Shown here one piece after another: positions 4,950 to 32,824 of a DNA stretch of 32,824 bases; positions within the stretch are counted from its first letter, which is position 1; each line of letters begins with the position of its first letter. Both the position numbers and the translations under genes were made by a program. The notes beneath the pieces were generated by a model. It ran no database searches. It saw only the letters and a program-made list of their open reading frames with translations, and was not told where the DNA came from. Origin of the DNA: an uncultured SAR86 cluster bacterium. Lineage in GTDB: Bacteria; Pseudomonadota; Gammaproteobacteria; Magnimaribacterales; D2472. The DNA lies in assembly GCA_902558375.1 (NCBI GenBank), contig CACEDQ010000013.1, positions 1 to 32,824 of the forward strand, written 5' to 3'.

Positions 4950-4955
4950 AGATAA

Positions 4956-6658: not shown

Positions 6659-6699
6659 AGTAGTATTCTACTCGCATTAGGATTAATGAGGGGAGCATT

Positions 6700-8447: not shown

Positions 8448-8470
8448 AGGCGTATTAAAGCATAAAAAAC

Positions 8471-8560: not shown

Positions 8561-8574
8561 GAAATTGATGCAAG

Positions 8575-8580
8575 ATTATA
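8575..8580 (-). promoter_or_regulatory. Putative -10 element of tRNA-Ser
   Basis: A perfect TATAAT on the minus strand lies 14 bases upstream of the mature tRNA-Ser 5' end, in the 46-base gap after the pyrC stop. No strong -35 is visible; a T-run lies at the expected distance. Confidence 0.5.
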
Positions 8581-8606
8581 ACTCTTTGATAAAAAAAAAT
8601 ACCTAC

Positions 8607-9941: not shown

Positions 9942-9942
9942 A

Positions 9943-11157: not shown

Positions 11158-11163
11158 ATTTTC

Positions 11164-13740: not shown

Positions 13741-13741
13741 T

Positions 13742-14260
13742 TTAGTAAGAAGCTAAGTCCTTATATTTCTTATAATTTTCTATGTAATGATGTGCTCCAA
13801 GTGACACCATTTTTTGTTCCTCATCATTAAGGGTTTTCTTGATTTTACCAGGCATACCTAGAACCATTGACCCGTCTGGAATTTCCATACCTTCAGTTAC
13901 TAATGCTTTGGCTCCAATAATACAGTTTTTACCTATTTTTGCTCCATTAAGAACGACGGACCCAATACCAATCAAAGTTCCATCTCCAATTTCACAACCG
14001 TGAAGCATTACCATGTGCCCTACGGTAACATGTTTTCCAATAATGCATTTATAACCTGGATCGGTATGAATAATTGAACCGTCTTGAACATTTGATCCCT
14101 CTCCAACAATTATTGGCTCATTGTCGCCTCTTATTGTTGCGTTAAACCAAACACTTGCATCTTTGGCAAGTTGAACATCACCAATAACTGTTGCACTTGG
14201 TGCAATGAAAAAATCTTCACCATCTGTTTTAAGCTTTTTTTCACCAAGTTCAATAATCAT
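13742..14260 (-). CDS. Gamma carbonic anhydrase-like hexapeptide-repeat protein (YrdA type)
   Basis: A left-handed beta-helix protein of 172 residues with hexapeptide repeats from about 22 to 145 (for example [19 protein letters not shown] and [17 protein letters not shown]). The three histidines that bind metal in gamma carbonic anhydrases are present: His65 (IIHTD), His82 (VGHMV) and His87 (LHGCEIG). The acidic loop with the catalytic Glu of archaeal Cam is not evident, as in bacterial YrdA/PaaY homologues, whose activity is often weak or unproven. It overlaps the upstream nudL gene by 11 bases and leads directly into alaS. Confidence 0.9.
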
Positions 14261-14852
14261 ATTGTTCTCTAATAATATCTAAATCCTCTTCTATACCTGC
14301 CTCAAAGCATGTATTGACGAAATCTGCAGTAATCATTGCAGTTAAGCCCCAAATTATTTGGTCATTATAAACCCAACTTGGAACTATTACATTTCTATTC
14401 TTTCTTTCTATCTTGTGAAGCTTGGCATTTTTTTTATCAGTAAGGAATTCTAGCGGCACCGTAAAAATTTTTTCTATTTCATTGTTATCTACTAAGTTCT
14501 GTTTTTTTGTTATCAGGCCTACATAAGGATTTACTTCAATTTTATGTTTTGAAACTAAATAGTTTAATGAGCCAGCTAAAACTACATCCTCTGTATTTAA
14601 ATTTATTTCTTCATTTGATTCTCTTAATGCTGTTTCATACAAATTTTTGTCTTGCTCATCCCATTTACCTCCTGGAAAACTGACCTCTCCTGAGTGAGTA
14701 GAAAGTTTTGTAGATCTTTGGGTAAAGATTATTTCTGGGTTATTAATGTATTCATCGTGATACAAAATACCTATAAAGACTCCAGCTTTTTTAAGAGAAG
14801 TTGATTCAATAGGATTTAGTTTTTCAAGCTTTTGCTTTATGCTGTCTAACAT
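14250..14852 (-). CDS. nudL: Nudix CoA pyrophosphatase (NudL-like)
   Basis: A Nudix hydrolase (200 residues) of the CoA pyrophosphatase (UPF0035) type, expected to cut CoA or its derivatives to phosphopantetheine and 3',5'-[22 protein letters not shown] (50-68) is the family-specific segment before the Nudix helix, which reads [11 protein letters not shown] with Arg77, Glu78, Glu81 and Glu82. PSWVY and IIWGLTAMI near the C-terminus are also typical. It is the first gene of the minus-strand chain toward pyrC and is divergent from another Nudix gene across 52 bases. Confidence 0.88.
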
Positions 14853-14904
14853 CAGGTACAGTTTAACTTCTTAAACGACCTTATACTATTTAGGAATATA
14901 AAAA

Positions 14905-15444
14905 TTGAAATATTGTTCAAATTGCGGAAGTTCAAATCTAGAATTTAAAATTCCAGAAGGTGATCACTACAAAAGGTACTGCTGCAAAGACTGTGAAACA
15001 ATTTTTTATACCAACCCTAATATGATTGTTGGAGCCTTGTGTATTAGAGATGAAAAAATCTTAATGGCTAAAAGAAATATTCATCCAAGAAAAGGATTGT
15101 GGACATTGCCAGCAGGCTTTATGGAAAACGCAGAAACCTTGCAAGCAGGTGCTCTAAGAGAAACAATGGAAGAGACATGCTCTGAGGCAAAAATAATAAT
15201 GCCATACACCATGTTTAGCTTGCCGCATATAAACCAAGTACATCTTTTTTATCTTGCAGATTTACTTGATGAAAACTTTGGTCCAACTTCTGAAAGTATG
15301 GAAGTGAAACTTTTTTCAAAAGACGAAATTCTTTGGAATGAATTAGCGTTTCCAACTGTAGAAAGAACTCTAAAGTACTATATCGAAGATAGCAAAAATA
15401 ATGATTTTATTTTTAGAGAAGAAGATATAACTCTTTGGAAATAG
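14905..15444 (+). CDS. Nudix hydrolase with N-terminal zinc ribbon
   Basis: A 179-residue Nudix hydrolase. Cys4-x2-Cys7 and Cys27-x2-Cys30 form a small zinc ribbon, followed by the Nudix domain. The Nudix box runs from Gly71 (GFMENAE, then RETMEE with Arg85, Glu86, Glu89 and Glu90), preceded by LWTLPAG. This layout is that of ADP-ribose/NADH pyrophosphatase-like Nudix proteins, and the substrate is not certain. The start is TTG 14905, the residue before KYCSNCG, with an AGGA ribosome site at 14892-14895. It ends 2 bases from the convergent purL stop. Confidence 0.87.
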   Translation: MKYCSNCGSSNLEFKIPEGDHYKRYCCKDCETIFYTNPNMIVGALCIRDEKILMAKRNIHPRKGLWTLPAGFMENAETLQAGALRETMEETCSEAKIIMPYTMFSLPHINQVHLFYLADLLDENFGPTSESMEVKLFSKDEILWNELAFPTVERTLKYYIEDSKNNDFIFREEDITLWK

Positions 15445-22105: not shown

Positions 22106-22180
22106 TCCCGAATAGCTCAGCGGTAGAGCAGTTGACTGTTAATCAATTGGTCGTTGGTTCGATCCCAACTTCGGGAGCCA
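22106..22180 (+). tRNA. tRNA-Asn (anticodon GUU)
   Basis: A 75-base tRNA with encoded CCA. UCCCGAA pairs with UUCGGGA, the D arm is GCUC-AGCGGUA-GAGC, the anticodon arm GUUGA-CUGUUAA-UCAAU gives anticodon GUU, and the T arm is GUUGG-UUCGAUC-CCAAC. Its 3' end marks the switch from housekeeping genes to accessory genes, and tRNA-Asn is a frequent integration site for mobile elements. Confidence 0.97.
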
Positions 22181-22240: not shown

Positions 22241-23176
22241 TCAATGAATTCTTTTGTTTTCAATATAATCAATTGGACTTTTTATAACCCTTTGGCAATA
22301 AACTTCAAGGCTTGGAGTTTTGACATCAAGTTTGCTTAGTATAAATTTATTTAGCTTCATAGCTAAAATATTTATTAATCCCAAATAATTGTTGATTTCA
22401 AAATCTAATACCTCTGAATGACACCCGCCTTCTTCATTCTCATTAAGCAGATTTAAACAATATCTCTCATATGCCATCACGAGCTCTTTCCAATACTTAA
22501 TATAATCTGTATTTAAATTTGAGAACTCTTTTACATCTGTTTCAGTTAGATTTCCGTTAGTGATTATAGATAATTCATCTAGCATGAATTCGAATGCATT
22601 AGGATTTGATAGTGCTTGGTCTAAAGTCTCTCTTGCGTGCTTGAAATTCATCAATATTTGCTCTGAAAGTTTTTTAATTTTTTCTATATTATTAAACTCT
22701 GACTCTGAAATAAGTTTTGTTAATAGTTCGCAGCCCTTTTCAAAAAAGACATAAGATTTAATAATAAAAGCCTCCATTTCATCAGGATGAAGATAGCTCA
22801 AAAATATCTTATGAAATTCTTTTTCGATCTGTATTGTCTGTAATATATTTGTCTCAAAAGTCTCAGAATCTAGTAAAGATCGATCGTGTTTGACATCACA
22901 AAATTCAATACATGACTTCACAAATGCTCTTAAGGCATATAAAGCTGACTTATGCTCAATACTGATGTTAGATGCTGCAATATCTACACTATTAAACATA
23001 TCAAGCGACTGTTGATACTGTTTAGAAAGCTTTATAAATTCATAATTATTTATATTTTTCTTGTTAGACTCATAAAAATGATCAATATCAGATGCAATCC
23101 AGTATGAGAAATTTAATTTTGTTTGAAGTTCTAGGAACTCCCTATCATGTTTTATGTTTTTATTAAAAAATTTCAT
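22241..23176 (-). CDS. Unknown helical protein under a LexA box
   Basis: A 311-residue protein I do not recognise. It looks almost wholly alpha-helical and soluble, with long amphipathic stretches, no signal peptide, and no enzyme motif I could defend. Possible landmarks are several Cys in the first half (KSCIEFC, near 87-93) and a late SEVLDFEINNYLGLINILAMKLNKF helix. It is the island gene nearest tRNA-Asn and is read toward it. A near-consensus LexA box overlaps its predicted -10, 37-56 bases upstream of the ATG, so expression is probably induced by DNA damage. By position it could be a damage-induced effector or regulator of the island, but that is a guess. Confidence 0.75.
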   Translation of the reverse strand: MKFFNKNIKHDREFLELQTKLNFSYWIASDIDHFYESNKKNINNYEFIKLSKQYQQSLDMFNSVDIAASNISIEHKSALYALRAFVKSCIEFCDVKHDRSLLDSETFETNILQTIQIEKEFHKIFLSYLHPDEMEAFIIKSYVFFEKGCELLTKLISESEFNNIEKIKKLSEQILMNFKHARETLDQALSNPNAFEFMLDELSIITNGNLTETDVKEFSNLNTDYIKYWKELVMAYERYCLNLLNENEEGGCHSEVLDFEINNYLGLINILAMKLNKFILSKLDVKTPSLEVYCQRVIKSPIDYIENKRIH

Positions 23177-23212
23177 TATTTAACTTTCATTTTGTTGTTA
23201 TAAAAAATTGTT

Positions 23213-23232
23213 TACTGTATAAATATACAGTA
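23213..23232 (-). promoter_or_regulatory. LexA (SOS) box
   Basis: TACTGTATAAATATACAGTA differs at one position from the E. coli consensus TACTG(TA)5CAGTA and keeps CTGT-N8-ACAG exactly. The perfect arms extend one base further on each side (TTACTGTATA / TATACAGTAA around AA). On the minus strand it overlaps the predicted -10 (TATATT, 23222-23227), which sits 16 bases from TTGTTA (23244-23249). Bound LexA would therefore block the promoter of the 311-residue gene. Confidence 0.88.
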
Positions 23233-23249
23233 ATAAATGAAATTAACAA
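23222..23249 (-). promoter_or_regulatory. Predicted sigma-70 promoter of the SOS-box gene
   Basis: On the minus strand TTGTTA (23244-23249) and TATATT (23222-23227) are separated by 16 bases, with the LexA box across the -10. The transcript leader before the ATG at 23176 would be about 40 bases. Confidence 0.55.
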
Positions 23250-23254
23250 TATGC

Positions 23255-23677
23255 CTAAAATGGTATGCACTCATTCTTATCACAAATAGTATTTCTGAAT
23301 ATTCTTTGATCTCTGCTGAGAAACCATTTACAAAGAGCATAAAACTTTGAGTTTTCATTACTAGAATAACTCTTAATAATGCTAGCTCGGCTTAATACGT
23401 CATGTTCTTGATAGGCCAGTAAATCCTCTAGATCTGAAATATATCTATGAAGCATGCCTCTATTTTTTAGATCTTTTTCAAGACCTTTGAAATGTTTAAT
23501 GTCCACGCCTTTAGATAATAAAAATGGTATATGTTTCTGCCAAGCAGTTCCTTTATCGGATAGAGTCATATATCTTTTATAAAAACAATTTAATCTAGCA
23601 TTGCCACGGATGCGTGCTGACCAGCAACTACAATCATTAAAATCTGAATTAAAAGGAATCATATTTTCATTAATCAT
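23255..23677 (-). CDS. Unknown small protein, 140 residues
   Basis: I do not recognise this family. The protein is basic and Cys-rich for its size: Cys at 16, 18 and 31 (NDCSCW, RLNCFY), then CKWFL and a C-terminal CDKNEC pair, so metal binding is possible but unproven. RIRGNARLNCFYKRYMTLSDKGTAWQ might contact nucleic acid. The gene starts two bases after the stop of the 103-residue gene and belongs to the same short operon, expressed from the operator-bearing promoter at 24021-24057. Confidence 0.65.
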   Translation of the reverse strand: MINENMIPFNSDFNDCSCWSARIRGNARLNCFYKRYMTLSDKGTAWQKHIPFLLSKGVDIKHFKGLEKDLKNRGMLHRYISDLEDLLAYQEHDVLSRASIIKSYSSNENSKFYALCKWFLSRDQRIFRNTICDKNECIPF

Positions 23678-23679
23678 CT

Positions 23680-23991
23680 TTAGAATTCTTTTATACTAAT
23701 TGTTTTTTTTCTTATGGTATAAGCCTCTTTTGCTGGAATTGTTTTTTCTGGTTGTGCTTTGTAGTTAATAAGGCCCCAATTTAAATTAAAATTTTTAAGC
23801 CTTGCGTGAGCATGATTTCCCATTGCTTCTTTAAGTTTTTCCATGCACATTTCTTTATGCTTTTTTGCTTCTTTAATTACTCTATCGCATTCCATTGATT
23901 GTTTTGCATAAATTGCTAGTGACTTATCTAAATTGATAATAGATCCGTTAACATCTAAGTCTTTAGTTTTCTTTGTATTCGTAGTTTCCAT
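23680..23991 (-). CDS. Small accessory protein resembling the tail of YqaJ-type phage exonucleases
   Basis: A 103-residue protein with a helical first half (about 25-60, DRVIKEAKKHKEMCMEKLKEAMG) and a beta-rich second half ending NYKAQPEKTIPAKEAYTIRKKTISIKEF. This helix-hairpin-then-strand arrangement, with the PEK...PAK...R motif, resembles the C-terminal accessory domain that accompanies YqaJ/lambda-exonuclease-type recombinases of phages. I base this on memory of the pattern, not a search. It heads an operon directly downstream of the PD-(D/E)XK nuclease gene, separated by 87 bases holding an operator. That fits a partner role for the nuclease. Confidence 0.55.
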   Translation of the reverse strand: METTNTKKTKDLDVNGSIINLDKSLAIYAKQSMECDRVIKEAKKHKEMCMEKLKEAMGNHAHARLKNFNLNWGLINYKAQPEKTIPAKEAYTIRKKTISIKEF

Positions 23992-24020
23992 AATAAATTT
24001 AATCCCTATAGTTAATAGAA

Positions 24021-24026
24021 CTTATA
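24021..24026 (-). promoter_or_regulatory. -10 element of the 103/140-residue operon
   Basis: TATAAG on the minus strand, exactly 14 bases downstream of the last base of the inverted-repeat core at 24041-24055, and about 30 bases from the ATG at 23991. The identical hexamer at the identical spacing occurs upstream of the AAA ATPase gene. Confidence 0.5.
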
Positions 24027-24038
24027 GTGGACTAGTAG

Positions 24039-24057
24039 TACGACAAAATGCGTCGTA
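24039..24057. promoter_or_regulatory. Putative WYL-regulator operator, copy 1
   Basis: TACGAC-N7-GTCGTA, a perfect 6-bp inverted repeat with a 7-base A/T-rich centre. It overlaps where the -35 of the downstream promoter would lie, and no good -35 hexamer is present. The core CGAC-N7-GTCG recurs at 30047-30061 next to the WYL regulator gene. Confidence 0.65.
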
Positions 24058-24078
24058 TAGAAAAATTTATTTTGAAAA

Positions 24079-24897
24079 TTAAATTAGCTTATGTTCCTGC
24101 ATGCCATCAAATAGCTCGGCATATTCACATTGTTTATCGCCTTTTGGACCGAAGCCTGAATCAGCATGATTTGGACATGTATCTTGATGTAAACAATCTC
24201 TTAGCTCTAAGATTGTGTTTTCAACCCATGAATCGTCTGCTACGTATGAAATTAACTGTACATCAAACTTCATATTAGCTTTATTTAAAGTGTCATCTAA
24301 CATTCCATCTTCAAAATGTTGATCACCATTTACATAAACGAAATAACCAATATTGCTAACATTGAAACCTTTCTGTCTAAGTATCCATTGATACATATCC
24401 ATTTGCCTTTTGTAGGCTTCCTTATATACTCCATTAAGATTTATTTCTGCTAAGCCAGTAGATTCTTCGTTTCTTTTTCCTGCAGTGCTTTTGTAATCAA
24501 CCACAAAAATCTCACCTGTAGCAGGGTCATGCCATACATCATCTAAACCTCCACCAATAATTAAATTACTTGATTCATGATTGACTCTTAAACCCAATTG
24601 CAAAGATTTGGTCCATGTCTCAAACTCATCATGCTTAAAAGGAACTAAGTGTCCTAATCCATTTCTTTCCATAAAAGGATGAGGTTTTTGTATTTCTCTA
24701 TATTTATCAAAATCTTTTTTTAATAGCGTGTCAGTAGCTGTATTTAGAAGAAAACCTGGCATTCCAGGAAACTTAATACCTTTTACACGATTCATCCAAA
24801 AGCATGCTGGACAGTTCATAAAACTTTGTATTTGAGAGCGACTTACCTCATAAGGCTCTGGATGGTCTGGTTTGAATGTTCCTCTATGTCTTGGCAT
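24079..24897 (-). CDS. PD-(D/E)XK (RecB/Cas4-like) nuclease with candidate Fe-S cysteines
   Basis: A 272-residue PD-(D/E)XK superfamily nuclease. GGGLDDVW (115-122, Asp119/120), FVVDYKST (131-138, Asp134 and Lys136) and RQMDMYQW with Gln165 and Tyr169 (the QxxxY motif of RecB/Cas4/AddB nucleases) make the active site look complete. Cys29 and Cys32 (NCPACFW) near the N-terminus and Cys235, Cys241 and Cys257 near the C-terminus are placed like the 4Fe-4S ligands of Cas4 and AddB. It probably acts on DNA ends or single strands. It is the last gene of the five-gene operon, one base after the clamp-like gene, which suggests a processive nuclease or recombination role. No CRISPR array or cas1 is present. 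Confidence 0.83.
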   Translation of the reverse strand: MPRHRGTFKPDHPEPYEVSRSQIQSFMNCPACFWMNRVKGIKFPGMPGFLLNTATDTLLKKDFDKYREIQKPHPFMERNGLGHLVPFKHDEFETWTKSLQLGLRVNHESSNLIIGGGLDDVWHDPATGEIFVVDYKSTAGKRNEESTGLAEINLNGVYKEAYKRQMDMYQWILRQKGFNVSNIGYFVYVNGDQHFEDGMLDDTLNKANMKFDVQLISYVADDSWVENTILELRDCLHQDTCPNHADSGFGPKGDKQCEYAELFDGMQEHKLI

Positions 24898-24898
24898 T

Positions 24899-25660
24899 TT
24901 AATTAGATGTCCTTATATCCTGCATTTCATTGTATACATCATAAATGGAATTTGCTATCGCAGAGTCCAGAAGTTTTGTTAAGTCTTTTTTTGATTTTGC
25001 TGCTAACAGTAAATTAGTTTCAGTGCCAGTTGCCCCTGACCATAGCTCGTGCAAATTCGAGGCTGTTATCGTGTCATCTAGATATAGAGGCATTAACATG
25101 TAGCATACATTTGGAGATGTTAATAAAAGTTTGCCGTCTTTAGTCTTGTTTATAGAAATAGGTTTAGTACCACTGACTGTTTTTTGTGAATGTAAATTTA
25201 AATATTTAATTTTTTTTAATAAATTTTGATCATAAAAATTAGGGGTTACATTCTTGTTTAAAATTTTTTTTGGGGCAACTGAACCAATCGTACTTGTTCT
25301 AAAGTTTTTAGTTGAATACTTTACAACAGAGATCGTATATTGCTTTGAATTAAATCTACACTCAGGATTAGAGTATGGGCCCCTTATGTAGACTTTTTTA
25401 TTACAATTCTTTATTTTTTTTGCCTCTATCTTTAATTTACTTTTATTGAAATCTATTGATACACCATCAGCTTTATTACATTCACCTTTGGGGTCATAAA
25501 AGACTAATAACTCCCATCCATTACAAGCAATTATGTTAATTCCACCAAGAATGCTAGGTATTATATGTACACAATTTAAATAAGTTCTCCATTCCTTTGT
25601 ACCTGTAAAATGACTAGCTTTTGCAATCATCTCCCCATTAGCCTCTATATTGATATTCAT
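24899..25660 (-). CDS. DnaN (sliding-clamp)-like protein
   Basis: A 253-residue protein with distant resemblance to the bacterial beta clamp. YLNCVHIIP...GGINIIACNGWELLVFYDPKG resembles the clamp segment YLNGMLFE...LRTVATDGHRLAVCSMP, and PNVCYMLMPLYL resembles the clamp C-terminal VMPMRL. The length would cover about two of the three clamp domains, so it might be a shortened phage-type clamp that needs a higher oligomer, or simply a clamp-fold protein. It sits between the DUF4116-like gene and the nuclease gene with one-base gaps. Pairing of a clamp-like protein with a nuclease fits processive DNA degradation or repair synthesis. The assignment is tentative. Confidence 0.5.
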   Translation of the reverse strand: MNINIEANGEMIAKASHFTGTKEWRTYLNCVHIIPSILGGINIIACNGWELLVFYDPKGECNKADGVSIDFNKSKLKIEAKKIKNCNKKVYIRGPYSNPECRFNSKQYTISVVKYSTKNFRTSTIGSVAPKKILNKNVTPNFYDQNLLKKIKYLNLHSQKTVSGTKPISINKTKDGKLLLTSPNVCYMLMPLYLDDTITASNLHELWSGATGTETNLLLAAKSKKDLTKLLDSAIANSIYDVYNEMQDIRTSN

Positions 25661-25661
25661 G

Positions 25662-27761
25662 TTACTTTTTTAATCCTTGTTTTTCTTCAAAAAAAAATGA
25701 TTTATATCTAGCCAATAAAAAAATATCATCTGTATCAATTTTTTGAATGAACCACTGATATATTTGATTTTTTTCATCACTATTAAAAAGTTGCATATCA
25801 AGATTTAGAATTTTTCGTATAGATAAATAATCAATTACATCTTTGGGATATTTTTTGAATGCTGGCATTAAAATATCTCTATCAGTTCTTATGCTAATGT
25901 GTGCGTTTTTAAATTTTGCAAGCGGGTCTTTATAAAAAATATCATCTAAAAATATTTTATCTTTTTTTAACTCATCGGCTGCATACCTAAAAGAGCTTTT
26001 GGCTTTCAAATATGCTAGCTTTACAATTTCTTTATTTGATTTAATAGGATGTGGTGCTAGTTTTAATATTTTAGAGGATATTAGAACTGCTTTTTTAACG
26101 AAATTCTTATCAAATAAATATCTTTTTGGAATAAAATGAAGATCCTGCCAGCAATTTATACCATATTTTTTTAGAATTGTTAGATAGAATTCATCATCTA
26201 TAACAGAATCAAAATATCTTTTAAACTTTGCTTTAATGAAAACATCATGATTATCTAAATAGATAAAACTTTTATCTAAGAGATTTGGGTTATTTTGTAA
26301 AAAATACCTATTTATTTCTGGGGTTCTCAATGCATTAGAAACCTTGAAGTAAATTTGTTCACCTATATCTAATATTCCTTGATCTGGCCACAACCTCCAA
26401 CGTACATATCTAATACCTTGATATCTAATAATGGTTTTAAAAAATTGCAAATCCATACTTTTTTCTAAGTATTTGATAACTTCTTTTTGAATAAAATCTG
26501 GCAACCAATCAGAGACTTCTCTTGCATATACTTTATCAAAATATACTGATGCTCCTCTAGGGTTATGGTTGCCAGACGGAAGAACATAAATAAATTCTTT
26601 TAGAAATGCTTTTGAAGAATAAATCTTTGAATCAAGATTGCGAATATAGTTAAGGCATTTTGGAGATCTTTTATGGATTGAATAATCTGTTGGCCAGGCA
26701 CCTAGTTCATCATAAGCTATTAAAGTTGCCTTTCTTGCTGAAATTGTTGGAGAAGTATCATATCCTCCTTCGTATAAATCAATTGATTTGAATTCATTAG
26801 CTAAAAAACGGCACTCAGTTGAGAGCTTACCATCATAAAGTCTTCTATTCTTCCAATAAATATTGTGAATAGTATTTTTTGGAATGTTTTTTAAATCTAA
26901 ATTTTCTCTAAGAAAAGCATGCACATCTTTAGTATTAAAAAACTTCCATTTGGAAAGAAAGTTAATCAAAAAATTTAAAGATTTTGTTTTTTTTAAAATT
27001 TCTCTGACAACAGCTTTTCTTGCTAATATGAATTTTTGCTTAAAATGTCTATGACATATGTGATTACTATGGATATATTCATGAAAATTGAGATAATCAT
27101 ATGAATTTCTATAATCTTTAGAAAAAATAAAATTTTCAACAAAAATTTTTGCATACTCTTCTTCAGAAATTTCATCATTAAGCATAAATGCAAAAGCTGT
27201 ATCTGGTGATTTATGTAAAGCTAATTGCTTAAAAGTTTTTTTGCTGTAAATATCAGGCAGTTCGATTCTTTGCCATGGTGGTGACCAATAAGACCATACC
27301 CCAATAAAGCACAAATCATATAAAGTTTTATTAGAATTGATAATCTCTTTACCAATATCTTTTTCAGAAATAGATAACCGCAAAATGTTTCTCGATAAGT
27401 TAATGGCTCTTGTAATGTTTTCCTTGGTATGAATTTTTATATCATCACATGACATCAAATATCGTAAACAATGCTCCTTTTGATAAAGGAAAAAATTATC
27501 TAAAATATCTTGATCATTGAGAAAGGAATCACACGGCAAGTCGAAGCTTTTAATTTTTTTATATTGAATGTGTTTTATAAAAACATCTTTGTCGCGTTGC
27601 AATCTTGTTGATATTTTTGAGAGACATAAATAGCTTTCTTTCATATGTTTTAAGACAAATTTTTTATCATCAAGAAGCTTGCATTCATTTTGAAAATTTC
27701 TTGAATCCCGATGGCTCAAGTTAACTATCTGATTTTCTTCTAAACTAAGTTTTTTTTTCAT
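25662..27761 (-). CDS. Large unknown protein with DUF4116-like repeats
   Basis: A 699-residue protein without signal peptide or membrane helices, rich in Lys, Phe, Tyr and Ile. The C-terminal third contains repeats of the DUF4116 type, that is, D-x-x-F/V-x-x-x-A followed by a-L-x-Y/F-A. The clearest is around residues 575-615 (NKEIVKLAYLKAKSSFRYAADELKKD without a break); weaker copies read DKSFIYLD, DDEFYLTILKKYG and KNFVKKAVLISSKILKLAP. The centre (about 315-450) has many aromatic residues (WSYWSPPWQ earlier, WLPDFIQKEV) and no motif I recognise. DUF4116 repeats are thought to be helical interaction modules. It is the third gene of the MoxR-VWA operon, so it could be the substrate-recognition or scaffold component. 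Confidence 0.65.
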   Translation of the reverse strand: MKKKLSLEENQIVNLSHRDSRNFQNECKLLDDKKFVLKHMKESYLCLSKISTRLQRDKDVFIKHIQYKKIKSFDLPCDSFLNDQDILDNFFLYQKEHCLRYLMSCDDIKIHTKENITRAINLSRNILRLSISEKDIGKEIINSNKTLYDLCFIGVWSYWSPPWQRIELPDIYSKKTFKQLALHKSPDTAFAFMLNDEISEEEYAKIFVENFIFSKDYRNSYDYLNFHEYIHSNHICHRHFKQKFILARKAVVREILKKTKSLNFLINFLSKWKFFNTKDVHAFLRENLDLKNIPKNTIHNIYWKNRRLYDGKLSTECRFLANEFKSIDLYEGGYDTSPTISARKATLIAYDELGAWPTDYSIHKRSPKCLNYIRNLDSKIYSSKAFLKEFIYVLPSGNHNPRGASVYFDKVYAREVSDWLPDFIQKEVIKYLEKSMDLQFFKTIIRYQGIRYVRWRLWPDQGILDIGEQIYFKVSNALRTPEINRYFLQNNPNLLDKSFIYLDNHDVFIKAKFKRYFDSVIDDEFYLTILKKYGINCWQDLHFIPKRYLFDKNFVKKAVLISSKILKLAPHPIKSNKEIVKLAYLKAKSSFRYAADELKKDKIFLDDIFYKDPLAKFKNAHISIRTDRDILMPAFKKYPKDVIDYLSIRKILNLDMQLFNSDEKNQIYQWFIQKIDTDDIFLLARYKSFFFEEKQGLKK

Positions 27762-27766
27762 TTAAA

Positions 27767-28993
27767 CTAAAAATTTACTGATTCAGTCGATATTCTTACA
27801 ACTTCACCAAAAGGGAAATTTTTTGTGTCTTCGCCGTCTTTCGATACCAGCCACATAACTGGGTTAGTCGGTATCCAAGCAGGAAATTGCTCATAACCGT
27901 CTGTTAAATATATTGAGAGTTTGTGAACTCCAAAGTGGCTATTATTATTTTTTTCTAAATATTCAAAAAAAGGAACAAAACTTGTACCTCCGCCCCCGTG
28001 TAATATTGGAATTTGTTCAGCATGGTTAATATCAAAAGGACCAGAAAGTTCGCAATCTGAATAAAAAAATTCACACTTTACATGAGGGTATGACCTCAAA
28101 ATACCTTTTGTTTCTGCTACAAATTGATCAATTAACCCTCTTGAAATAGAGCCGCTAGTGTCTATACACACAGATACCTCTATTGCATCGCACATTAAGG
28201 CTTCTAAATATAAGCCCCTGTACAAAAATCTTCTATCCAGATCATCAAAATCTGCAGGAGTTCTTCCAATATATTTCCAAAGAGCATTTCTCCAATTTAT
28301 TTCCGGTTCTAGGATATTCTCAACCTCTCTTGCCATTCCGGCAGGTAAGCCACCTGTTGAGTGGCTTCCATACTTATCATTTTGAATTAAAGAATCAGAG
28401 TTTTTTAGCACTTGTAATTTATCTTTCCAGTAACTTGCTATCTCCTCTTGCTCTTCTTCTGATAGCTCATTTCCAATACCGATACCATTACTATCTTCTT
28501 GCTCTTCTTTTGTTTTTTCATCATCAGCTCCAGAATTTATTGAGGCAGCGATATCAGCAAGAGATAGTTCATATTTTTTAGCTTTATACTTATCGTCTTT
28601 TAGTAGAGCTTCGTAGATATATTCAACAGATTTATCACGATATGCGTGATCTATAACTGCTCCCTTAGGTAACTTAAAAGATGTGTTTCGTTGAATTAAG
28701 TCGTTAACAACAATATCTGCAGCAATATTCCATATATAAGGATCACGAGACTGTCTTCTTTGGACATGTAAAAGAGCCATATGAAGAACTTCATGAAGCA
28801 TTAGAGCGTTTTGTTCAGATGAGGTTAAGCTCTCAAGAAATTTTTTATTAAAAAATATATCCCTACCATCTGTTGCTGCCGTATCTAATTTTGTTGTTTC
28901 TTTTATTGAAGCAAAAAGCATCAAAGCACCAAAGAATTGACATTCTCTTCTTACTTGAAGCTTTGTTTTGCTGATGATTTCAGAAAAATTCAT
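27767..28993 (-). CDS. VWA-like protein with HExxH metallopeptidase-type domain (DUF2201 family)
   Basis: A 408-residue protein of the type usually encoded beside MoxR AAA+ ATPases. The N-terminal domain has HEVLH (His67, Glu68, His71) followed by NIAADIVVN (Asp93 may be a third ligand), the metallopeptidase-like signature of DUF2201 proteins. An acidic linker runs from about 155 to 190. The C-terminal VWA-like domain has DTSGS (278-282), GGTSF (336-340) and TDG (364-366), a complete MIDAS metal site. Such pairs are thought to act as ATP-driven chaperones or remodelling machines on a partner complex, and actual peptidase activity is unproven. It lies one base after the ATPase gene, with the DUF4116-like gene five bases on. 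Confidence 0.87.
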   Translation of the reverse strand: MNFSEIISKTKLQVRRECQFFGALMLFASIKETTKLDTAATDGRDIFFNKKFLESLTSSEQNALMLHEVLHMALLHVQRRQSRDPYIWNIAADIVVNDLIQRNTSFKLPKGAVIDHAYRDKSVEYIYEALLKDDKYKAKKYELSLADIAASINSGADDEKTKEEQEDSNGIGIGNELSEEEQEEIASYWKDKLQVLKNSDSLIQNDKYGSHSTGGLPAGMAREVENILEPEINWRNALWKYIGRTPADFDDLDRRFLYRGLYLEALMCDAIEVSVCIDTSGSISRGLIDQFVAETKGILRSYPHVKCEFFYSDCELSGPFDINHAEQIPILHGGGGTSFVPFFEYLEKNNNSHFGVHKLSIYLTDGYEQFPAWIPTNPVMWLVSKDGEDTKNFPFGEVVRISTESVNF

Positions 28994-28994
28994 G

Positions 28995-30002
28995 CTATGC
29001 AGCTAAAAGTTTTTGCAATTTATCAGCGACTGACATTAATTTATCATTTGCCATAATCATATCGACTAATTCATTTACTTTTTTGTTACTCTTCCAAATA
29101 GTTGAAACATCATAAGTACACTGGCTCAACCACTCCATGCCACCTTTCTTATCAATATATAAGAAAGCATTTTCAACCTCTTTGATCGTTTTTGCTCTTA
29201 CTGCTAGTGCACAAGTTAGTGCGTATCTTGCTGAAAGATCCTCAGGAAATTTAGGGCTCATATCGCCTGATAAGATTGTTGGTATATCTGGCAAGCTTTT
29301 GTAAACTTTACAAAAGCCTCTAAACTCTGATGCGCAACCCTGACCAATTGCTGGATCAAGATCTAAATTTGCTTTTAAAAGCTTATCACCAATATCCCAA
29401 CTTCTCGGTGATGGCCATGAAGGTGAATTTTTATCAATTTTATGAAGGTATTTTGGTCTAAAATTTAGGAATGAAATAATCCTATCATCTATATTGTTTC
29501 GTAATGCGTAATCCTTAAACTCATCAAGCCCTGTTTTGACTTCTAAATGAATAAAACGATTGGCTAATGGTGCAGGCATATCGAAAACAGCAGCAAAATC
29601 TTCTTTTCTGTTTCCTGCGCTCCATATAAACCAACCATCTGGAACTTTATAATTACCAACCTTTCTATCTAAAATTAATTGTTGAGCTATTCCCTGAACA
29701 GCAGGTGGAGCCATATTTATCTCATCTAAAAATAAAATACCCTTTCCTGAAGTGGGCAAGAATTCAGGTGGATACCAATATGCAGTGTCATCTTTTGGAA
29801 CAGGTATTCCTCTCAAATCAGTTGGAGCCAGTTGGCTTATTCTAAGATCTATTAATTCAAGATTATGTTCCTTAGCTACTGATGATATAACTGAAGATTT
29901 TCCAATGCCTGGAGCCCCCCAAATCATCAAAGATGATTGAATGTTATGTTCAACGACTTTACCTAAATAATTAGACAGTTTTTTTATAGTTAGTTTTTTC
30001 AT
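28995..30002 (-). CDS. MoxR-type AAA+ ATPase
   Basis: A 335-residue AAA+ ATPase (AAA_5/MoxR group). Walker A is GAPGIGKSS (29-37, Lys35), Walker B is ILFLDEI (89-95, Asp93/Glu94) followed by NMAPPAVQGIAQQLI, and sensor-1 is WSAGNRKED. The arginine-finger region includes MPAPLANRFIH. The C-terminal lid is helical. AAAGGAG is a good ribosome site five bases before the ATG. It is the first gene of the five-gene minus-strand operon and lies divergently from the WYL regulator, with an operator in the 53-base gap. It should drive conformational work with the VWA protein next to it. Confidence 0.9.
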   Translation of the reverse strand: MKKLTIKKLSNYLGKVVEHNIQSSLMIWGAPGIGKSSVISSVAKEHNLELIDLRISQLAPTDLRGIPVPKDDTAYWYPPEFLPTSGKGILFLDEINMAPPAVQGIAQQLILDRKVGNYKVPDGWFIWSAGNRKEDFAAVFDMPAPLANRFIHLEVKTGLDEFKDYALRNNIDDRIISFLNFRPKYLHKIDKNSPSWPSPRSWDIGDKLLKANLDLDPAIGQGCASEFRGFCKVYKSLPDIPTILSGDMSPKFPEDLSARYALTCALAVRAKTIKEVENAFLYIDKKGGMEWLSQCTYDVSTIWKSNKKVNELVDMIMANDKLMSVADKLQKLLAA

Positions 30003-30026
30003 ACCTACTCCTTTAATTTTTGTATT

Positions 30027-30032
30027 CTTATA
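30027..30032 (-). promoter_or_regulatory. -10 element of the MoxR-VWA-nuclease operon
   Basis: TATAAG on the minus strand, 14 bases from the inverted-repeat core at 30047-30061 and about 25 bases before the ATPase ATG. Hexamer and spacing are the same as at the second operon (24021-24026). Confidence 0.5.
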
Positions 30033-30046
30033 GTATTATTTGAAGA

Positions 30047-30061
30047 CGACATTTTGTGTCG
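30047..30061. promoter_or_regulatory. Putative WYL-regulator operator, copy 2
   Basis: CGACA-TTTTG-TGTCG, read in register with copy 1 as CGAC-N7-GTCG. It lies in the gap between the divergent ATPase and WYL genes, 10 bases upstream of ATG 30071, so it could control both directions. Finding it next to the only transcription factor gene of the island, and again at the second operon, suggests it is that factor's site. Confidence 0.65.
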
Positions 30062-30070
30062 CATATAAAT

Positions 30071-31081
30071 ATGACAAGACCTAAGCATACCGAAGCGATT
30101 AGAAGAGGATTTAAAATTCTTACAATGGTAAGTAGAGCGCCATTAAGCTCTAGAGATATTCATTCTAGAATTAATGATTCAGGTATAGATGTTTCTCAAA
30201 GAACTATTGAAAGAGACTTAAAAGAACTTCCAGATATTTTTCCTCAAATGATAGAAGTTGATGATAAATCAAAACCTTATACTTATAGACAACCAAGAGA
30301 TGCTAGAAGTCATTCTGGAATGAGCCCTGATGAAGCAGTTTGTCTAGAACTTGCATATACCTATCTTAATCCTTTACTTCCAAATACATCACTCGATAAT
30401 ATCAGACGGTATCTTAAAGAAGCCGAAGCTGTATTAAATGAAACTTCTTCAACAAAAATGAAAAGATGGAAAGATAAAGTACAAACTGTAAATGAAGGTT
30501 TTCAACTAAAACAAGCAAAGATTAAAGATGGAATTCTTCAAAATATTCATAAAGCTTTGTGGGAAGGAAGAACCATTACTGCTAAATATAGAGGTGCAAA
30601 AAGTAGTATAGCCAAAGATTATGTCTTGCATCCTGCAGGAATTGTTAATAGAGGAAGAATTTGTTATTTGATATGTTCTTTTGATGATGATGCTAAAAAA
30701 GTTACTTATTTGCCGTTGCATAGATTTTATAGTGTAGGTCTAATTTATGAGCAACAAAGTAGACATCACAATGAAAAAGTTGCTAACTTAACCAAAAATT
30801 TGTTCGGTTTTAATGTTGGCCGAGAAAAAATTAAAATTAAATTAAAATTTTCTATGGATGCTGGCAGGCATTTATACGAAACTCCACTTTCAAATAAACA
30901 AAAAATACATCAGTCAAAGGATGGTTATATTATTGTTGAAGATACTGTTCCTGGTGGAGGTGAATTAAGTTGGTGGATAAGAGCTTTTGGTGATTCTGTT
31001 GAAATACTTAAACCTCAATCACTAAGAGACGAATTTAAAAAAATGTCTATAAGAATGGCTAAGTTATATGAAAAAAATTGA
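30071..31081 (+). CDS. WYL-domain transcriptional regulator
   Basis: A helix-turn-helix plus WYL-domain regulator, 336 residues from ATG 30071. A GTG at 30056 would add five residues but lies inside the operator. Numbered from that GTG, the winged HTH spans about 12-62 (SSRDIHSRIN, DVSQRTIERDLKEL). The WYL domain is about 158-232, with YLICSF and LPLHRF, and the eponymous Trp is replaced by Cys203 (CYL). A WCX-type C-terminal extension ends with GGGELSWWIRAFGDSVEILKP. WYL regulators often control phage-defence or DNA-damage genes and can sense nucleic acid. It is divergent from the ATPase operon and overlaps the TerB-like gene by 14 bases. Confidence 0.88.
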   Translation: MTRPKHTEAIRRGFKILTMVSRAPLSSRDIHSRINDSGIDVSQRTIERDLKELPDIFPQMIEVDDKSKPYTYRQPRDARSHSGMSPDEAVCLELAYTYLNPLLPNTSLDNIRRYLKEAEAVLNETSSTKMKRWKDKVQTVNEGFQLKQAKIKDGILQNIHKALWEGRTITAKYRGAKSSIAKDYVLHPAGIVNRGRICYLICSFDDDAKKVTYLPLHRFYSVGLIYEQQSRHHNEKVANLTKNLFGFNVGREKIKIKLKFSMDAGRHLYETPLSNKQKIHQSKDGYIIVEDTVPGGGELSWWIRAFGDSVEILKPQSLRDEFKKMSIRMAKLYEKN

Positions 31082-31463
31082 AATAAATTCTATTGAGTCA
31101 GTGATTCTCTTTACCCTTTATATTTGTGCTCAAGATGATGTTATCGCGGAGGAAGAAATAGAAGAATTAGCTGCAGAAGGGCCTATTTTACAAAAATTAT
31201 ATTTAGATATGTATGGAGAACTTATTAATCAAGATTTAAAAGAAGTTATCAAAGATACTGCAAAAAAATTAGAGCCTAGAAAACAATTTATAGGTAAAAA
31301 TATTTCTGACATAGAGCAAAAAACTTTTTCACGACTGATAACCGATCCTAAAATTCGTGATATAGCATTACTAATTAGCAGACATGCAGCAAGCGCAGAT
31401 GGGTTTCATAAAAATGAAAGTCATAAATTTAAGTACTGGTCTAAAAAATGGGGTATATCTTAA
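31068..31463 (+). CDS. TerB-like small protein
   Basis: A 131-residue acidic helical protein. Its C-terminal half (ALLISRHAASADGFHKNESHKFKYW, interrupted here) resembles the TerB fold of tellurite-resistance-associated proteins, in which an ADG motif followed by an acidic residue binds metal. The N-terminal AQDDVIAEEEIEELAAEG is a second, weaker ADG-E-like element, as expected for the pseudo-repeat of TerB. Its start lies inside the end of the WYL gene, so the two are probably translated together. The stop overlaps the convergent UmuD-like gene. The fold assignment is moderate; any link to membrane stress or metal sensing is speculative. Confidence 0.55.
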   Translation: MKKIEINSIESVILFTLYICAQDDVIAEEEIEELAAEGPILQKLYLDMYGELINQDLKEVIKDTAKKLEPRKQFIGKNISDIEQKTFSRLITDPKIRDIALLISRHAASADGFHKNESHKFKYWSKKWGIS

Positions 31464-32365
31464 ATAAAACGATTAATTGCAGAGGTAACAGTACCTAAAA
31501 TTTCAAAATTTTGGCCATTTTTGTTGAAAATTTCAGGAAAATCAGGATTATCTGCAACCAGGGATAGCTCAGGGTTGAGTTTTAATCTCCTGCAAACACA
31601 CTCTCCATCGACATCAGCAATCACAAGACTGTTCTGCTCAGGTTTAATAAACTTATCAACTACTAGCAATGATTGATGTGTTATTCCAGAATCAAACATA
31701 GCTTGTCCATTAGCTCTTACTAAAAAAGTAGCCCTTCCATTTTTTATCAGATGTTTATTAAAATCTATTGAGGATTGTAAATAGTCACTTTTAGGACTAG
31801 AAAACTCTTCAATGGAATTTAGAATTGGTATGTTTTCGTTTTCCTTTTGGAGTTCACATAAAAATTTAAGATTTATTTCGTTGCCACTTAGAAATGCCAC
31901 ACAAAGCTTGGTTGATTCAAACAAATAAGATTCATAATTTAAAGGATCACTATCAATTATTTCATTTATAGTTTTTGAATTGATACTTCTAAATCTAAAG
32001 CCATGATTTGAAATTATCTCCCTTAGTGGCAGAGGATAGTTGTAAGATTCAAAAATAAAATTTGTTGCACAATATGAAGTGTAAAATAACTTCCATGTAA
32101 AATTTTTCTCAAGTTCTTTTATTCTTCTATTATATTCATCTCTTAATTTTTCATATTTTCTTTCAATTTTTAGCTTCTTCTTTTCTAGGGATTTGATTTT
32201 TTTAGCTTTTAAAAATACGTCTTCTTTAATACTTCTAGTCTCAGGTATTTCTTTATTTATTCTTATTAATTCTTTTGGATCGATTAAGTGTTTTTTTAGT
32301 TGTGATAGAACATACAGATGCTCGATTGTTTTTGTTCCAAGGAATCCTCGTTTTGTAAAAATCAT
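31460..32365 (-). CDS. UmuD-like protein with dead protease site and novel N-terminal domain
   Basis: A 301-residue protein. Residues 190-301 align well with UmuD: SPKSDYLQSSIDFNKHLI matches SPAADYVEQRIDLNQLLI, and VVDKFI, ADVDGE, RRLKL and GTVTSAI continue the match. The catalytic Ser60 of UmuD corresponds to Ala222 (NGQAM), Lys97 to Arg259, and the scissile Cys24-Gly25 to Glu186-Glu187. It should therefore be neither an active S24 protease nor self-cleavable; it mimics processed UmuD'. The first 185 residues are an unrecognised domain including a charged coiled coil (about 45-90). UmuD' normally binds UmuC and the beta clamp. No umuC is visible, but the gene may lie beyond the edge. The adjacent upstream gene ends two bases away. 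Confidence 0.83.
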   Translation of the reverse strand: MIFTKRGFLGTKTIEHLYVLSQLKKHLIDPKELIRINKEIPETRSIKEDVFLKAKKIKSLEKKKLKIERKYEKLRDEYNRRIKELEKNFTWKLFYTSYCATNFIFESYNYPLPLREIISNHGFRFRSINSKTINEIIDSDPLNYESYLFESTKLCVAFLSGNEINLKFLCELQKENENIPILNSIEEFSSPKSDYLQSSIDFNKHLIKNGRATFLVRANGQAMFDSGITHQSLLVVDKFIKPEQNSLVIADVDGECVCRRLKLNPELSLVADNPDFPEIFNKNGQNFEILGTVTSAINRFI

Positions 32366-32367
32366 TT

Positions 32368-32824
32368 CTATTTACATCTTGATACTGTTTCAAAGAAATC
32401 TTTTTTTAACTGCGCAATTTTAAAAATATCGTCTTTAGGTATTTTTTTTTCATAACATCCCCAAACATAATCTTTTTGAGCTTTTGTTTTATCGTTTAGA
32501 TCTAATTGAACCATTTGTATTTTTAATAAGCGTTTGCATAAATGTATTTTTGGATTAGTTTCTGCAAACATTGCTGCTTCAATTAAATCTAAATCTTTTT
32601 GCTTTTCTGGTGCTATATCTTGATAAACAAGTCCATTTTTATTAATCAGATTTTTAAGGGTTTCTTTGTCAAAGCAAGAATGATCTGAGTGACGAATTAA
32701 CTGATTGTATTTTTTTAAAATAGTTTTTACTAACTTAGGCTGAGATATATGGTTGATTAAAAAAGGGTATTGCAATACAAATTCAATGATTGATTCTTTA
32801 TTTTCTTTTTTAATTGAATTAAAT
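32368..32824 (-). CDS. Partial protein with DUF4116-like repeat, runs off right edge
   Basis: The minus-strand frame is open from the stop at 32368 to the window end; upstream of a possible TTG at 32773-32775 it continues without stop (KESIIEFVLQYPF), so the 5' end is missing. At least 151 residues are visible. LKNLINKNGLVYQDIAP followed by DLDLIEAAMFAETN fits the DUF4116 repeat, in which N-G-x-A/V-L-x-Y-A-x-x-x-L is followed by D-x-x-x-V-x-A-A. The rest is Lys-rich and helical. It is probably co-transcribed with the UmuD-like gene (2-base gap). A DUF4116-like protein also occurs in the main island operon. Confidence 0.6.
   Translation of the reverse strand, partial: FNSIKKENKESIIEFVLQYPFLINHISQPKLVKTILKKYNQLIRHSDHSCFDKETLKNLINKNGLVYQDIAPEKQKDLDLIEAAMFAETNPKIHLCKRLLKIQMVQLDLNDKTKAQKDYVWGCYEKKIPKDDIFKIAQLKKDFFETVSRCK

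What the first reader, a model, noticed from the sequence alone, without database searches (positions are those of the whole stretch)
22241..32824. Candidate undescribed DNA-damage or defence module
In one tRNA-linked island: a WYL regulator with two matched operators, a MoxR-VWA machine, a nuclease, a clamp-like protein, an SOS-controlled unknown, a dead UmuD homologue and DUF4116 proteins. UmuD' and nucleases both act through the clamp in known systems. A coherent idea is that damage or phage replication is sensed through LexA and the WYL protein, and the ATPase/VWA complex then loads or releases a nuclease on clamp-marked DNA. I know of no described defence system with this gene set.
Basis: inference. 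Interest (0 to 1): 0.8.

Follow-up and report, generated by a model that had tools for sequence, protein, structure and literature searches.

The report
Switchable defence cassette in SAR86 bacteria
A mobile gene cassette in an uncultured ocean bacterium sits in a chromosomal slot where relatives carry known anti-virus systems, and it joins a protein-remodelling ATPase and protease, a likely DNA-cutting enzyme and a relative of a viral replication clamp under one genetic switch, so it is probably an undescribed anti-virus system.

Summary
The listed parts are real: a WYL/WCX regulator with two matched operators (CGACA-N5-TGTCG), a tight five-gene MoxR-VWA-DUF4116-clamp-like-nuclease operon, a gene behind a genuine LexA box, and a UmuD homologue without its catalytic pair. 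The host is a SAR86-type genome. The block starts at the 3' end of tRNA-Asn, where close relatives have an empty site. In other SAR86 genomes the same slot holds Mza, a DISARM-like set or a type XIII retron. The MoxR-VWA-WYL-TerB-like core is rare (5 of 203 genomes); it adjoins Mza in three of these and DISARM-like genes in a fourth, and in the fifth, the window, the contig ends. The WYL operator lies upstream of 19 of 30 WYL genes in the order. I conclude that this is probably a new anti-phage module on the known MoxR-vWA conflict plan, with unusual further parts: a fast-evolving solenoid and a phage-type clamp homologue, the latter certain in only two genomes. Its mechanism (nuclease loaded or released on clamp-marked DNA) is untested, and the LexA input is not conserved in the best relative. 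Nothing here shows anti-phage activity.

The parts
22106..22180 (+). tRNA-Asn(gtt), left boundary of the island; homology with the empty site of a relative stops 3 bp after it
22241..23176 (-). 311-aa protein of unknown function, LexA box in front of it in this genome; homologue in G148 (31% id) and in the island of G021
23215..23230 (+). LexA (SOS) box CTGTATAAATATACAG, identical to those of recA and umuDC in the same genome; none found in the G148 stretch L003
23255..23677 (-). 140-aa unknown; no match in the G148 island
23680..23991 (-). 103-aa small protein, 66% id in G148; first gene behind operator 2
24041..24055 (+). WYL operator 2 (CGACAAAATGCGTCG, 1 mismatch); exact copy at the corresponding place in G148
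24079..24897 (-). Cas4/RecB-like PD-(D/E)xK nuclease: DYK at 134-136, QxxxY at 165-169, Cys 29, 32, 235, 241, 257
24899..25660 (-). beta-clamp-like protein (clamp domain 2), phage-type family, 27% id in G148
25662..27761 (-). DUF4116 repeat (alpha-solenoid) protein, 31% id in G148
27767..28993 (-). VWA protein with N-terminal zinc-metallopeptidase-like domain: HEVLH 67-71 and MIDAS DTSGS 278-282, HExxH and DTSGS kept in all 7 aligned
28995..30002 (-). MoxR-type AAA+ ATPase (Walker A GAPGIGKS at 29-36), 84% id in G148
30047..30061 (+). WYL operator 1 (CGACATTTTGTGTCG) between the MoxR operon and the WYL gene; a likely WYL start is the ATG at 30071
30056..31081 (+). WYL-WCX transcription regulator, BrxR/CapW type
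31068..31463 (+). 131-aa helical, possibly TerB-like protein, next to the WYL gene in all five MoxR loci; homologous to the small first gene of the neighbouring Mza loci
31460..32365 (-). catalytically dead UmuD-like (S24) domain behind an N-terminal region of about 180 aa without recognised domain
32368..32823 (-). ORF cut off by the window's end, weak DUF4116 match (below cut-off)

Best explanation
This is a horizontally moving anti-phage cassette in the uvrB/tRNA-Asn defence hotspot of SAR86 bacteria. Shown by sequence: a BrxR/CapW-type WYL regulator with matched operators between the MoxR operon and its own gene and before the small-protein operon, which points to one regulon. Inferred: in the quiet cell WYL represses the set, and a ligand made during infection or replication stress (ssDNA in some studied relatives) releases it. 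MoxR (AAA+ ring) and the VWA/metallopeptidase protein form a chaperone-protease. The rapidly changing DUF4116 solenoid and clamp-like protein are the recognition parts: the solenoid captures a phage protein or complex and the clamp homologue connects to the replication fork. Remodelling or proteolysis by the ATPase-protease then licenses the Cas4-like nuclease to cut replicating phage DNA. The conserved parts (MoxR, nuclease, VWA) are the machine and the diverging ones are the phage-facing parts.
For: Empty site in relatives whose UvrB is 99-100% identical, with a break at the tRNA 3' end. The same slot carries Mza (G147, G148), a DISARM-like set (G076: DrmA, DrmB) and a type XIII retron (G002). 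MoxR at 65% identity or more in 5 of 203 genomes, Mza helicase at 45% or more in 5 of 203, both in 3 (hypergeometric p 7e-5, kinship not corrected). Exact WYL operator within 260 bp upstream of 19 of 30 WYL genes in the order, against about 0.001-0.002 expected in all 30 from the background or the reversed-pattern rate. Operator 2 conserved in place in G148, with a third copy before two more genes there. Rate contrast G000-G148: MoxR 84, nuclease 83, VWA 71 against DUF4116 31, clamp 27, 311-aa 31, with UvrB 85. Catalytic motifs intact. Elsewhere in bacteria the MoxR-VWA pair stands directly beside a repeat solenoid of one BLAST cluster (LRV where scanned) in 7 of 20 distant loci.
Against: No phage-challenge, binding or cutting data exist. 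The total number of exact operator sites in the order (65) is hardly above the reversed pattern (58, counted from the table), so only their position speaks for them. The window ends before any neighbouring system, and no Mza helicase was found in G000 (72% complete). The nuclease has a more distant homologue in most genomes of three SAR86 families, so it may have a general role. The clamp-like protein is certain only in G000 and G148; the 286-aa protein in G076 was placed by alignment and has no independent match, and none was recognised in G030 and G189, whose nuclease is the distant form. The nearest phage relatives of the MoxR-VWA pair lie among virion genes. The clamp fold could not be modelled. 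Low identity of solenoid and clamp could be gene replacement or relaxed constraint. Two of the five MoxR loci lack an exact operator and a third has one mismatch.
Confidence: 0.45

Rival explanations
1. DNA-repair or stress module: the set is not antiviral but handles damaged or stalled forks. WYL senses ssDNA as PafBC and DriD do, LexA adds one gene, and the chaperone-protease removes stalled replisome parts so that the nuclease can process ends.
For: LexA box before the 311-aa gene; dead UmuD homologue; clamp homologue; WYL proteins PafBC and DriD respond to ssDNA (PMC11804915, PMC12340889: titles and starts of abstracts in the listing).
Against: MoxR core in 5 of 203 genomes and absent in relatives with the same UvrB, which is unusual for repair; joined to Mza or DISARM-like genes in 4 of the 4 loci long enough to show a neighbour system; LexA box not found in G148.
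Confidence: 0.15
2. Accessory arm of the neighbouring system: the cassette is not a system of its own but an add-on that sharpens Mza or DISARM, for example by proteolytic control of their helicases.
For: Adjacent to Mza in G148, G189 and G030 and to DISARM-like genes in G076; the TerB-like protein is homologous to the small first gene of the neighbouring Mza loci (HMM E 3e-6).
Against: Partner systems differ; Mza occurs without MoxR in G147 and G074; a MoxR-VWA pair occurs in cyanobacteria, Chloroflexota and others without a Mza match in the loci fetched.
Confidence: 0.2
3. Captured phage genes: the MoxR-VWA-metallopeptidase pair is a virion-assembly chaperone and the clamp a phage replication protein, that is, the remains of a prophage or satellite parked at a tRNA.
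For: Jumbo phages of group 2.2 carry a MoxR plus vWA with an N-terminal metallopeptidase, proposed for virion assembly (PMC7824862, passage read); 815 phage records hold a MoxR relative and S-TIM5 carries the pair among structural genes; clamp relatives on 10 and nuclease relatives (24-42%) on 8 viral contigs.
Against: No capsid, tail, terminase or integrase family in Pfam and PHROG scans of the block's proteins; distant bacterial MoxR relatives (45-57%) are as close as the best phages (48-53%) and closer than the other phages listed (31-40%); no close MoxR relative in viral contigs; no nuclease match in 50,697 phage records at E 1e-3; no two cassette families together in 18 viral loci.
Confidence: 0.12
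4. Selfish or addiction module: the set persists through toxicity of the nuclease or protease held back by WYL repression.
For: WYL operator next to the WYL gene and the MoxR operon; nuclease and protease motifs intact.
Against: About eleven genes with two machines are far larger than known addiction modules (recalled); sporadic presence with clean empty sites.
Confidence: 0.05

Closest known systems
MoxR-vWA ternary conflict systems (VMAP, iSTAND, FtsH, beta-propeller types; Kaur et al. 2020, PMC7159879, passages read)
   Same: MoxR AAA+ plus vWA co-chaperone with a variable further component; peptidase effectors occur in the group (PMC12839542, passage read).
   Different: The further component is a DUF4116 solenoid plus a clamp-like protein; the peptidase is N-terminal of the vWA; a Cas4-like nuclease is in the same operon.
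MoxR + metallopeptidase-vWA pair of group 2.2 jumbo phages (PMC7824862, passage read) and of cyanophage S-TIM5
   Same: Same two-protein architecture; 53% identity of MoxR to S-TIM5 over 88%.
   Different: Chromosomal, WYL-linked and next to defence systems, not virion genes.
BrxR / CapW WYL regulators (PMC9122601, PMC9122589, PMC9122588, passages read)
   Same: WYL-WCX protein with inverted-repeat sites at its own promoter region and at a second place in the island; BrxR also has two sites with a 5-bp spacer.
   Different: Shorter arms (5 bp in the motif used here, 11 bp in BrxR); a different gene set; partnered with a TerB-like protein.
Mza (MutL-Z1-DUF-AIPR) and DISARM
   Same: Share the same hotspot and are physically joined to the MoxR cassette in G148, G189, G030 (Mza) and G076 (DISARM-like).
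   Different: None of their genes is in the window; no Mza helicase found in G000.
Bacterial and phage beta sliding clamps (PHROG 947, PHROG 3007)
   Same: Homologous to clamp domain 2 (family profile E 8e-7 to solved beta clamps).
   Different: 253 aa with one recognised clamp domain, diverged motif, sits in this operon.

Membership tests
MoxR-vWA ternary conflict systems (four described types) | MoxR-clade AAA+ ATPase | tested here: met
   AAA_5 and PHROG 1297 matches, Walker A intact
MoxR-vWA ternary conflict systems (four described types) | vWA co-chaperone with MIDAS | tested here: met
   DUF2201 VWA, DTSGS invariant in 7 of 7
MoxR-vWA ternary conflict systems (four described types) | third component VMAP, iSTAND, FtsH or beta-propeller | tested here: inconclusive
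   No such domain in Pfam scans of the window proteins at E 0.1 (ten proteins) and E 0.05 (two more); DUF4116 solenoid instead; diverged versions cannot be excluded
MoxR-vWA ternary conflict systems (four described types) | effector domain C-terminal to the vWA | tested here: not met
   Metallopeptidase-like domain is N-terminal; the vWA match ends at 401 of 408 residues
Jumbo-phage MoxR / metallopeptidase-vWA pair | adjacent MoxR and vWA with N-terminal metallopeptidase domain | tested here: met
Jumbo-phage MoxR / metallopeptidase-vWA pair | location in a phage genome with virion genes | tested here: not met
   Chromosomal hotspot, no virion families found
BrxR/CapW-type WYL regulator | wHTH-WYL-WCX architecture | tested here: inconclusive
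   WYL and WCX above Pfam cut-off; the HTH region matched only below cut-off
BrxR/CapW-type WYL regulator | palindromic operator at its own promoter | tested here: met
   Exact site next to this WYL gene, and upstream of 19 of 30 WYL genes in the order
BrxR/CapW-type WYL regulator | represses the linked defence operon | not testable with these tools
   needs binding and reporter assays
Cas4/RecB-like PD-(D/E)xK nuclease | DxK and QxxxY motifs | tested here: met
   DYK 134-136, QMDMY 165-169
Cas4/RecB-like PD-(D/E)xK nuclease | four cysteines for an Fe-S cluster | tested here: inconclusive
   Cys 29, 32, 257 invariant in 6 of 6; the fourth position varies
Beta sliding clamp | sequence homology to clamp domains | tested here: met
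   39 of 41 PDB matches (E up to 0.5) of the family profile are beta clamps, best E 8e-7; with the three island proteins alone 15 of 15 but only E 0.36-0.85
Beta sliding clamp | three clamp domains forming a ring | tested here: inconclusive
   Only domain 2 is matched; model failed, pLDDT 30.5
UmuD | Ser-Lys catalytic pair | tested here: not met
   GQAM and CRRL in place of GQSM and CKRL
TerB-like | TerB fold | tested here: inconclusive
   Best structural match is a COG3793 tellurite-resistance protein, Z 7.3, 100 residues, 3.4 A; globins follow at Z 5.0 and less; Foldseek had no E below 0.001 and Z under 8 can be general; no Pfam match
Mza | MutL, Z1, DUF4420 and AIPR genes | tested here: not met
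   Not in the window; no Z1 helicase in G000 (genome 72% complete, contig ends in the island)

The most novel reading that the evidence does not exclude
A new class of immune machine that attacks the phage replisome itself. The host keeps a captured, fast-evolving relative of a phage sliding clamp as bait or targeting ring; a MoxR/vWA-protease opens or destroys the complex that forms on it, and a co-expressed nuclease cuts the DNA there. More widely, MoxR plus vWA-metallopeptidase plus a repeat solenoid (DUF4116 in SAR86, LRV/HEAT in cyanobacteria and others) would be a fifth, undescribed type of ternary conflict system across bacteria.
Probability: 0.18. Interest if true: 0.85.

Novelty: new variant of a known kind. 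Interest (0 to 1): 0.62.

Why it matters
SAR86 bacteria are ubiquitous in ocean surface water and resist cultivation (abstract of PMC3569297 in the listing), so their defences are hard to study directly. If the reading is right, SAR86 has a chromosomal slot in which whole immune systems are exchanged, with regulators that share one operator, so new cargo can be found by searching for the slot or the operator. The cassette would also give a testable example of an AAA+/vWA-protease immune system aimed at replication through a clamp homologue, and would link the orphan families DUF2201, DUF4116 and LRV to conflict biology.

Tried and rejected
Clamp fold: AlphaFold2 on a 3-sequence alignment failed (pLDDT 30.5), so the claim rests on sequence. 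The 286-aa protein of G076 aligned with the clamps but was found by none of tblastn, clustering or PHROGs; I keep it as uncertain, and the label CLAMP in the maps comes from a profile that contained it. TerB-like protein: Foldseek gave no significant match; a second look put tellurite-resistance and related proteins on top at Z 7.3 and 6.7, which I treat as a lead. Prophage remnant: see rivals. Operators by the repeat finder with arms of 8 or more: none at 29940-30120, because the arms are 5 bp; seen by reading and then by pattern search. Integrase or att repeat: none seen; comparison of the two ends of the G148 island gave short chance-like matches, apart from a near-copy of the tRNA 3' end close to it. 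Right end of the G000 island: the contig with umuDC stops 204 bp after its SOS box. Whole-order operator count: 65 exact sites against 58 of the reversed pattern, so no genome-wide excess. Solenoid neighbours: other MoxR-VWA neighbours scanned were unrelated (LysM, amidohydrolase, dehydrogenase, phosphoesterase or no match). VWA was not found by tblastn in 4 of 17 distant loci (L014, L015, L016, L021). Literature: none of the 15 papers listed (of 310 with DUF2201 or MoxR) holds DUF2201; DUF4116 is in 2 papers; a search joining LRV and MoxR terms listed 9 papers, none with an LRV term.


Full report
WHAT IS THERE. The window is a stretch of a 1.0-Mb genome that is 72% complete. The closest named relatives of its MoxR gene are a SAR86 single-cell genome (AG-913-G13, L003, the same contig as G148) and AH-736-J14 (L004, the same contig as G076). 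From tRNA-Asn (22106-22180) rightwards: a 311-aa unknown, a 140-aa unknown, a 103-aa protein, then a five-gene operon read leftwards, MoxR-VWA-DUF4116-clamp-like-nuclease, with gaps of 1, 5, 1 and 1 bp. Divergent from it are a WYL/WCX regulator and a 131-aa protein, then an S24/UmuD-like protein and a cut-off ORF with a weak DUF4116 match.

THE PARTS. MoxR has an intact Walker A. The VWA protein has an N-terminal metallopeptidase-like domain with HEVLH and an intact MIDAS DTSGS; HExxH and DTSGS are kept in 7 of 7 aligned proteins, including those of plasmid pSYSA and cyanophage S-TIM5. The nuclease has DYK, QxxxY and Cys pairs, Cas4/RecB-like. The clamp-like protein: a profile of the window and G148 copies, an uncertain one from G076 and five viral-contig relatives matches solved beta clamps at E 8e-7, and 39 of 41 PDB sequences matched at E 0.5 are beta clamps. 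The G148 copy finds phage proteins annotated as DNA polymerase III beta, and relatives lie on 10 viral contigs; three of the viral proteins scanned and the G148 copy also match a PHROG of DNA polymerase processivity factors, the G076 protein none. The window copy is diverged and could not be modelled. DUF4116 was modelled by others as an alpha-solenoid (PMC8078820, passage read). The 131-aa protein gives a confident model (pLDDT 87) whose best structural neighbour is a tellurite-resistance (TerB-type) protein at Z 7.3, a lead only. It is homologous to the small first gene of the neighbouring Mza loci (HMM E 3e-6). The S24 protein has lost the Ser and Lys that the genome's own UmuD keeps.

REGULATION. 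CGACA-N5-TGTCG occurs at 30047 (exact) and 24041 (one mismatch); 2 found against 0.11 expected. In G148 it is exact at both corresponding places, with a third before a gene that is distantly related (28%, E 4e-5) to the window's cut-off last ORF. Across 203 genomes of the order there are 65 exact sites in 37 genomes; the reversed pattern gives 58 by my count of the table, so there is no genome-wide excess. The position is the evidence: of 30 WYL genes listed, 19 have an exact site within 260 bp upstream and 20 within 500 bp, where the background or the reversed-pattern rate predicts about 0.001-0.002 for all 30. The other 10 have none within 500 bp; G076 has one with a mismatch, and in G030 and L005 (G189) the region shows at most a degenerate form. 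BrxR likewise has two inverted-repeat sites with 5-bp spacers in its island (PMC9122601, passages read), and CapW binds palindromes at its operon (PMC9122588, passages read). The LexA box before the 311-aa gene is the same 16-mer as before recA and umuDC in this genome, but L003 (G148) has none, so SOS control is not conserved there.

LOCATION. In genomes with UvrB 99-100% identical to this one (G016, G012, G014) tRNA-Asn is followed directly by a core gene that looks by eye like a small phosphatase and, about 3-4 kb on, by umuD; G001, also 99%, has a 288-aa ORF in between. Homology between the window and G016 ends at 22183, 3 bp after the tRNA. Of 20 further loci that I chose from the 86 genomes with a UvrB match, 12 have that core gene as the first listed ORF; the tRNA itself was confirmed by exact match in 11 of the 20, all of the window's genus. 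In G148 about 25 kb lies in between, in this order: our cassette, further genes, a Mza set, two cytosine methyltransferase-like genes, and then the core gene. G147 has Mza and a methyltransferase next to uvrB; G076 has our cassette and a DISARM-like set (DrmA E 5e-180, DrmB E 1e-79); G002 has a type XIII retron between a close nuclease relative and the WYL/TerB-like pair; G021 has a relative of the 311-aa gene and a methyltransferase. G030 and G189 carry the core and Mza at another site (L005 belongs to G189 by its 100% identical helicase). Mza was named by PADLOC in L003 and L005 and elsewhere by clustering with these.

CONSERVATION TOGETHER. MoxR: 6 of 203 genomes at E 1e-40, 5 of them at 65% identity or more. 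All five have VWA, WYL and the 131-aa family beside it. The Mza helicase is in 6 of 203, 5 of them at 45% identity or more; three genomes have both, p 7e-5 without correction for kinship, and two of the three are of one genus. The nuclease: 94 of 203; 11 genomes hold a close form (68-100%), the other 83 only a distant one (32-45%), and distant second copies occur too. Of those 11, seven have a defence gene other than the cassette in the stretch that I fetched, named by PADLOC directly or through clustering (G148, G076, G002, G103, G099, G122, G074; some of these are helicase matches of part of a system). In the remaining four (the window, G054, G123 with fragments, G184 on a short contig) none was identified, though not every gene was scanned. 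WYL relatives without MoxR also lie near partial matches to GajB, MkoA and ZorD.

TWO SPEEDS. Between G000 and G148, UvrB is 85% identical, MoxR 84, nuclease 83, VWA 71, 103-aa protein 66, WYL 64, TerB-like 60, but S24 35, DUF4116 31, 311-aa 31 and clamp 27. A constant machine with diverging partners is what phage-facing recognition parts would give, though gene replacement or relaxed constraint would look alike.

BEYOND SAR86. VWA stands beside MoxR in 13 of 17 distant bacterial loci by tblastn (not in L014, L015, L016, L021) and in pSYSA, a Thermus plasmid and S-TIM5. The other SAR86 families tested were not found there. In 7 of these 20 loci a protein of one repeat-solenoid cluster is the direct neighbour, and 9 of 20 have one in the stretch; five of the nine were scanned and all five match Pfam LRV. 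S-TIM5 has the pair among structural genes, and jumbo phages carry the same architecture, proposed for virion assembly (PMC7824862, passage read).

MECHANISM. Shown: operon, operator sites, intact catalytic motifs, dead UmuD, hotspot, company of defence systems. Inferred: repression by WYL and release by an infection signal; a MoxR/VWA chaperone-protease; solenoid and clamp homologue as recognition parts; nuclease as the cutter. I put 0.45 on this whole reading and about 0.75 on the narrower statement that the cassette serves defence, alone or with its neighbours.

NOVELTY. MoxR-vWA conflict systems are known in four types (PMC7159879, passages read), and WYL control of defence islands is known. 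The combination with a metallopeptidase-vWA, a DUF4116 solenoid, a clamp homologue and a Cas4-like nuclease in one WYL regulon did not show in the listings of my searches, which cover open-licence PMC papers only. The ARMADA paper's main text has no MoxR (passages); a CRISPR survey reports vWA-MoxR-VMAP genes near type III loci (PMC10910872, passage).

Noticed in passing
L065 (G002:C6), 4272-15357: In a genome of the same genus the uvrB/tRNA-Asn slot holds a type XIII retron (RT, SWIM, HEAT/WGR) between a 77%-identical nuclease and the TerB-like/WYL pair.
   Followed up: partly
L007, L008, L010, L013, L016, L017, L087: MoxR-VWA pairs of distant bacteria (in L016 MoxR alone, at a contig end) stand directly beside LRV/HEAT-type repeat proteins, three of them around one Calothrix pair.
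   Followed up: partly
L075 (G123:C1:700000-719900), 9327-10651: Nuclease pieces, a short ORF with a clamp-profile match and a second umuDC copy lie together near uvrB, perhaps remains of a former island.
   Followed up: no
L081 (G148), 5612-5676: A near-copy (14 of 17 letters) of the tRNA-Asn 3' end starts 48 bp downstream of it, possibly a trace of an older integration; no integrase was seen.
   Followed up: partly
L092 (G000:C3:87773): Another CTGT-N8-ACAG site lies near a protein that by eye has DUF4116-like repeats, elsewhere in this genome.
   Followed up: no
PHROG 3007 and PHROG 1314: The labels 'RusA-like resolvase' and 'HNH endonuclease' look wrong for what is matched here: a clamp homologue and a metallopeptidase-VWA protein.
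   Followed up: partly
window 23215-23677: The 140-aa gene and the LexA box are both missing in G148, where the flanking genes are 20 bp apart, so both may have arrived (or been lost) together.
   Followed up: partly
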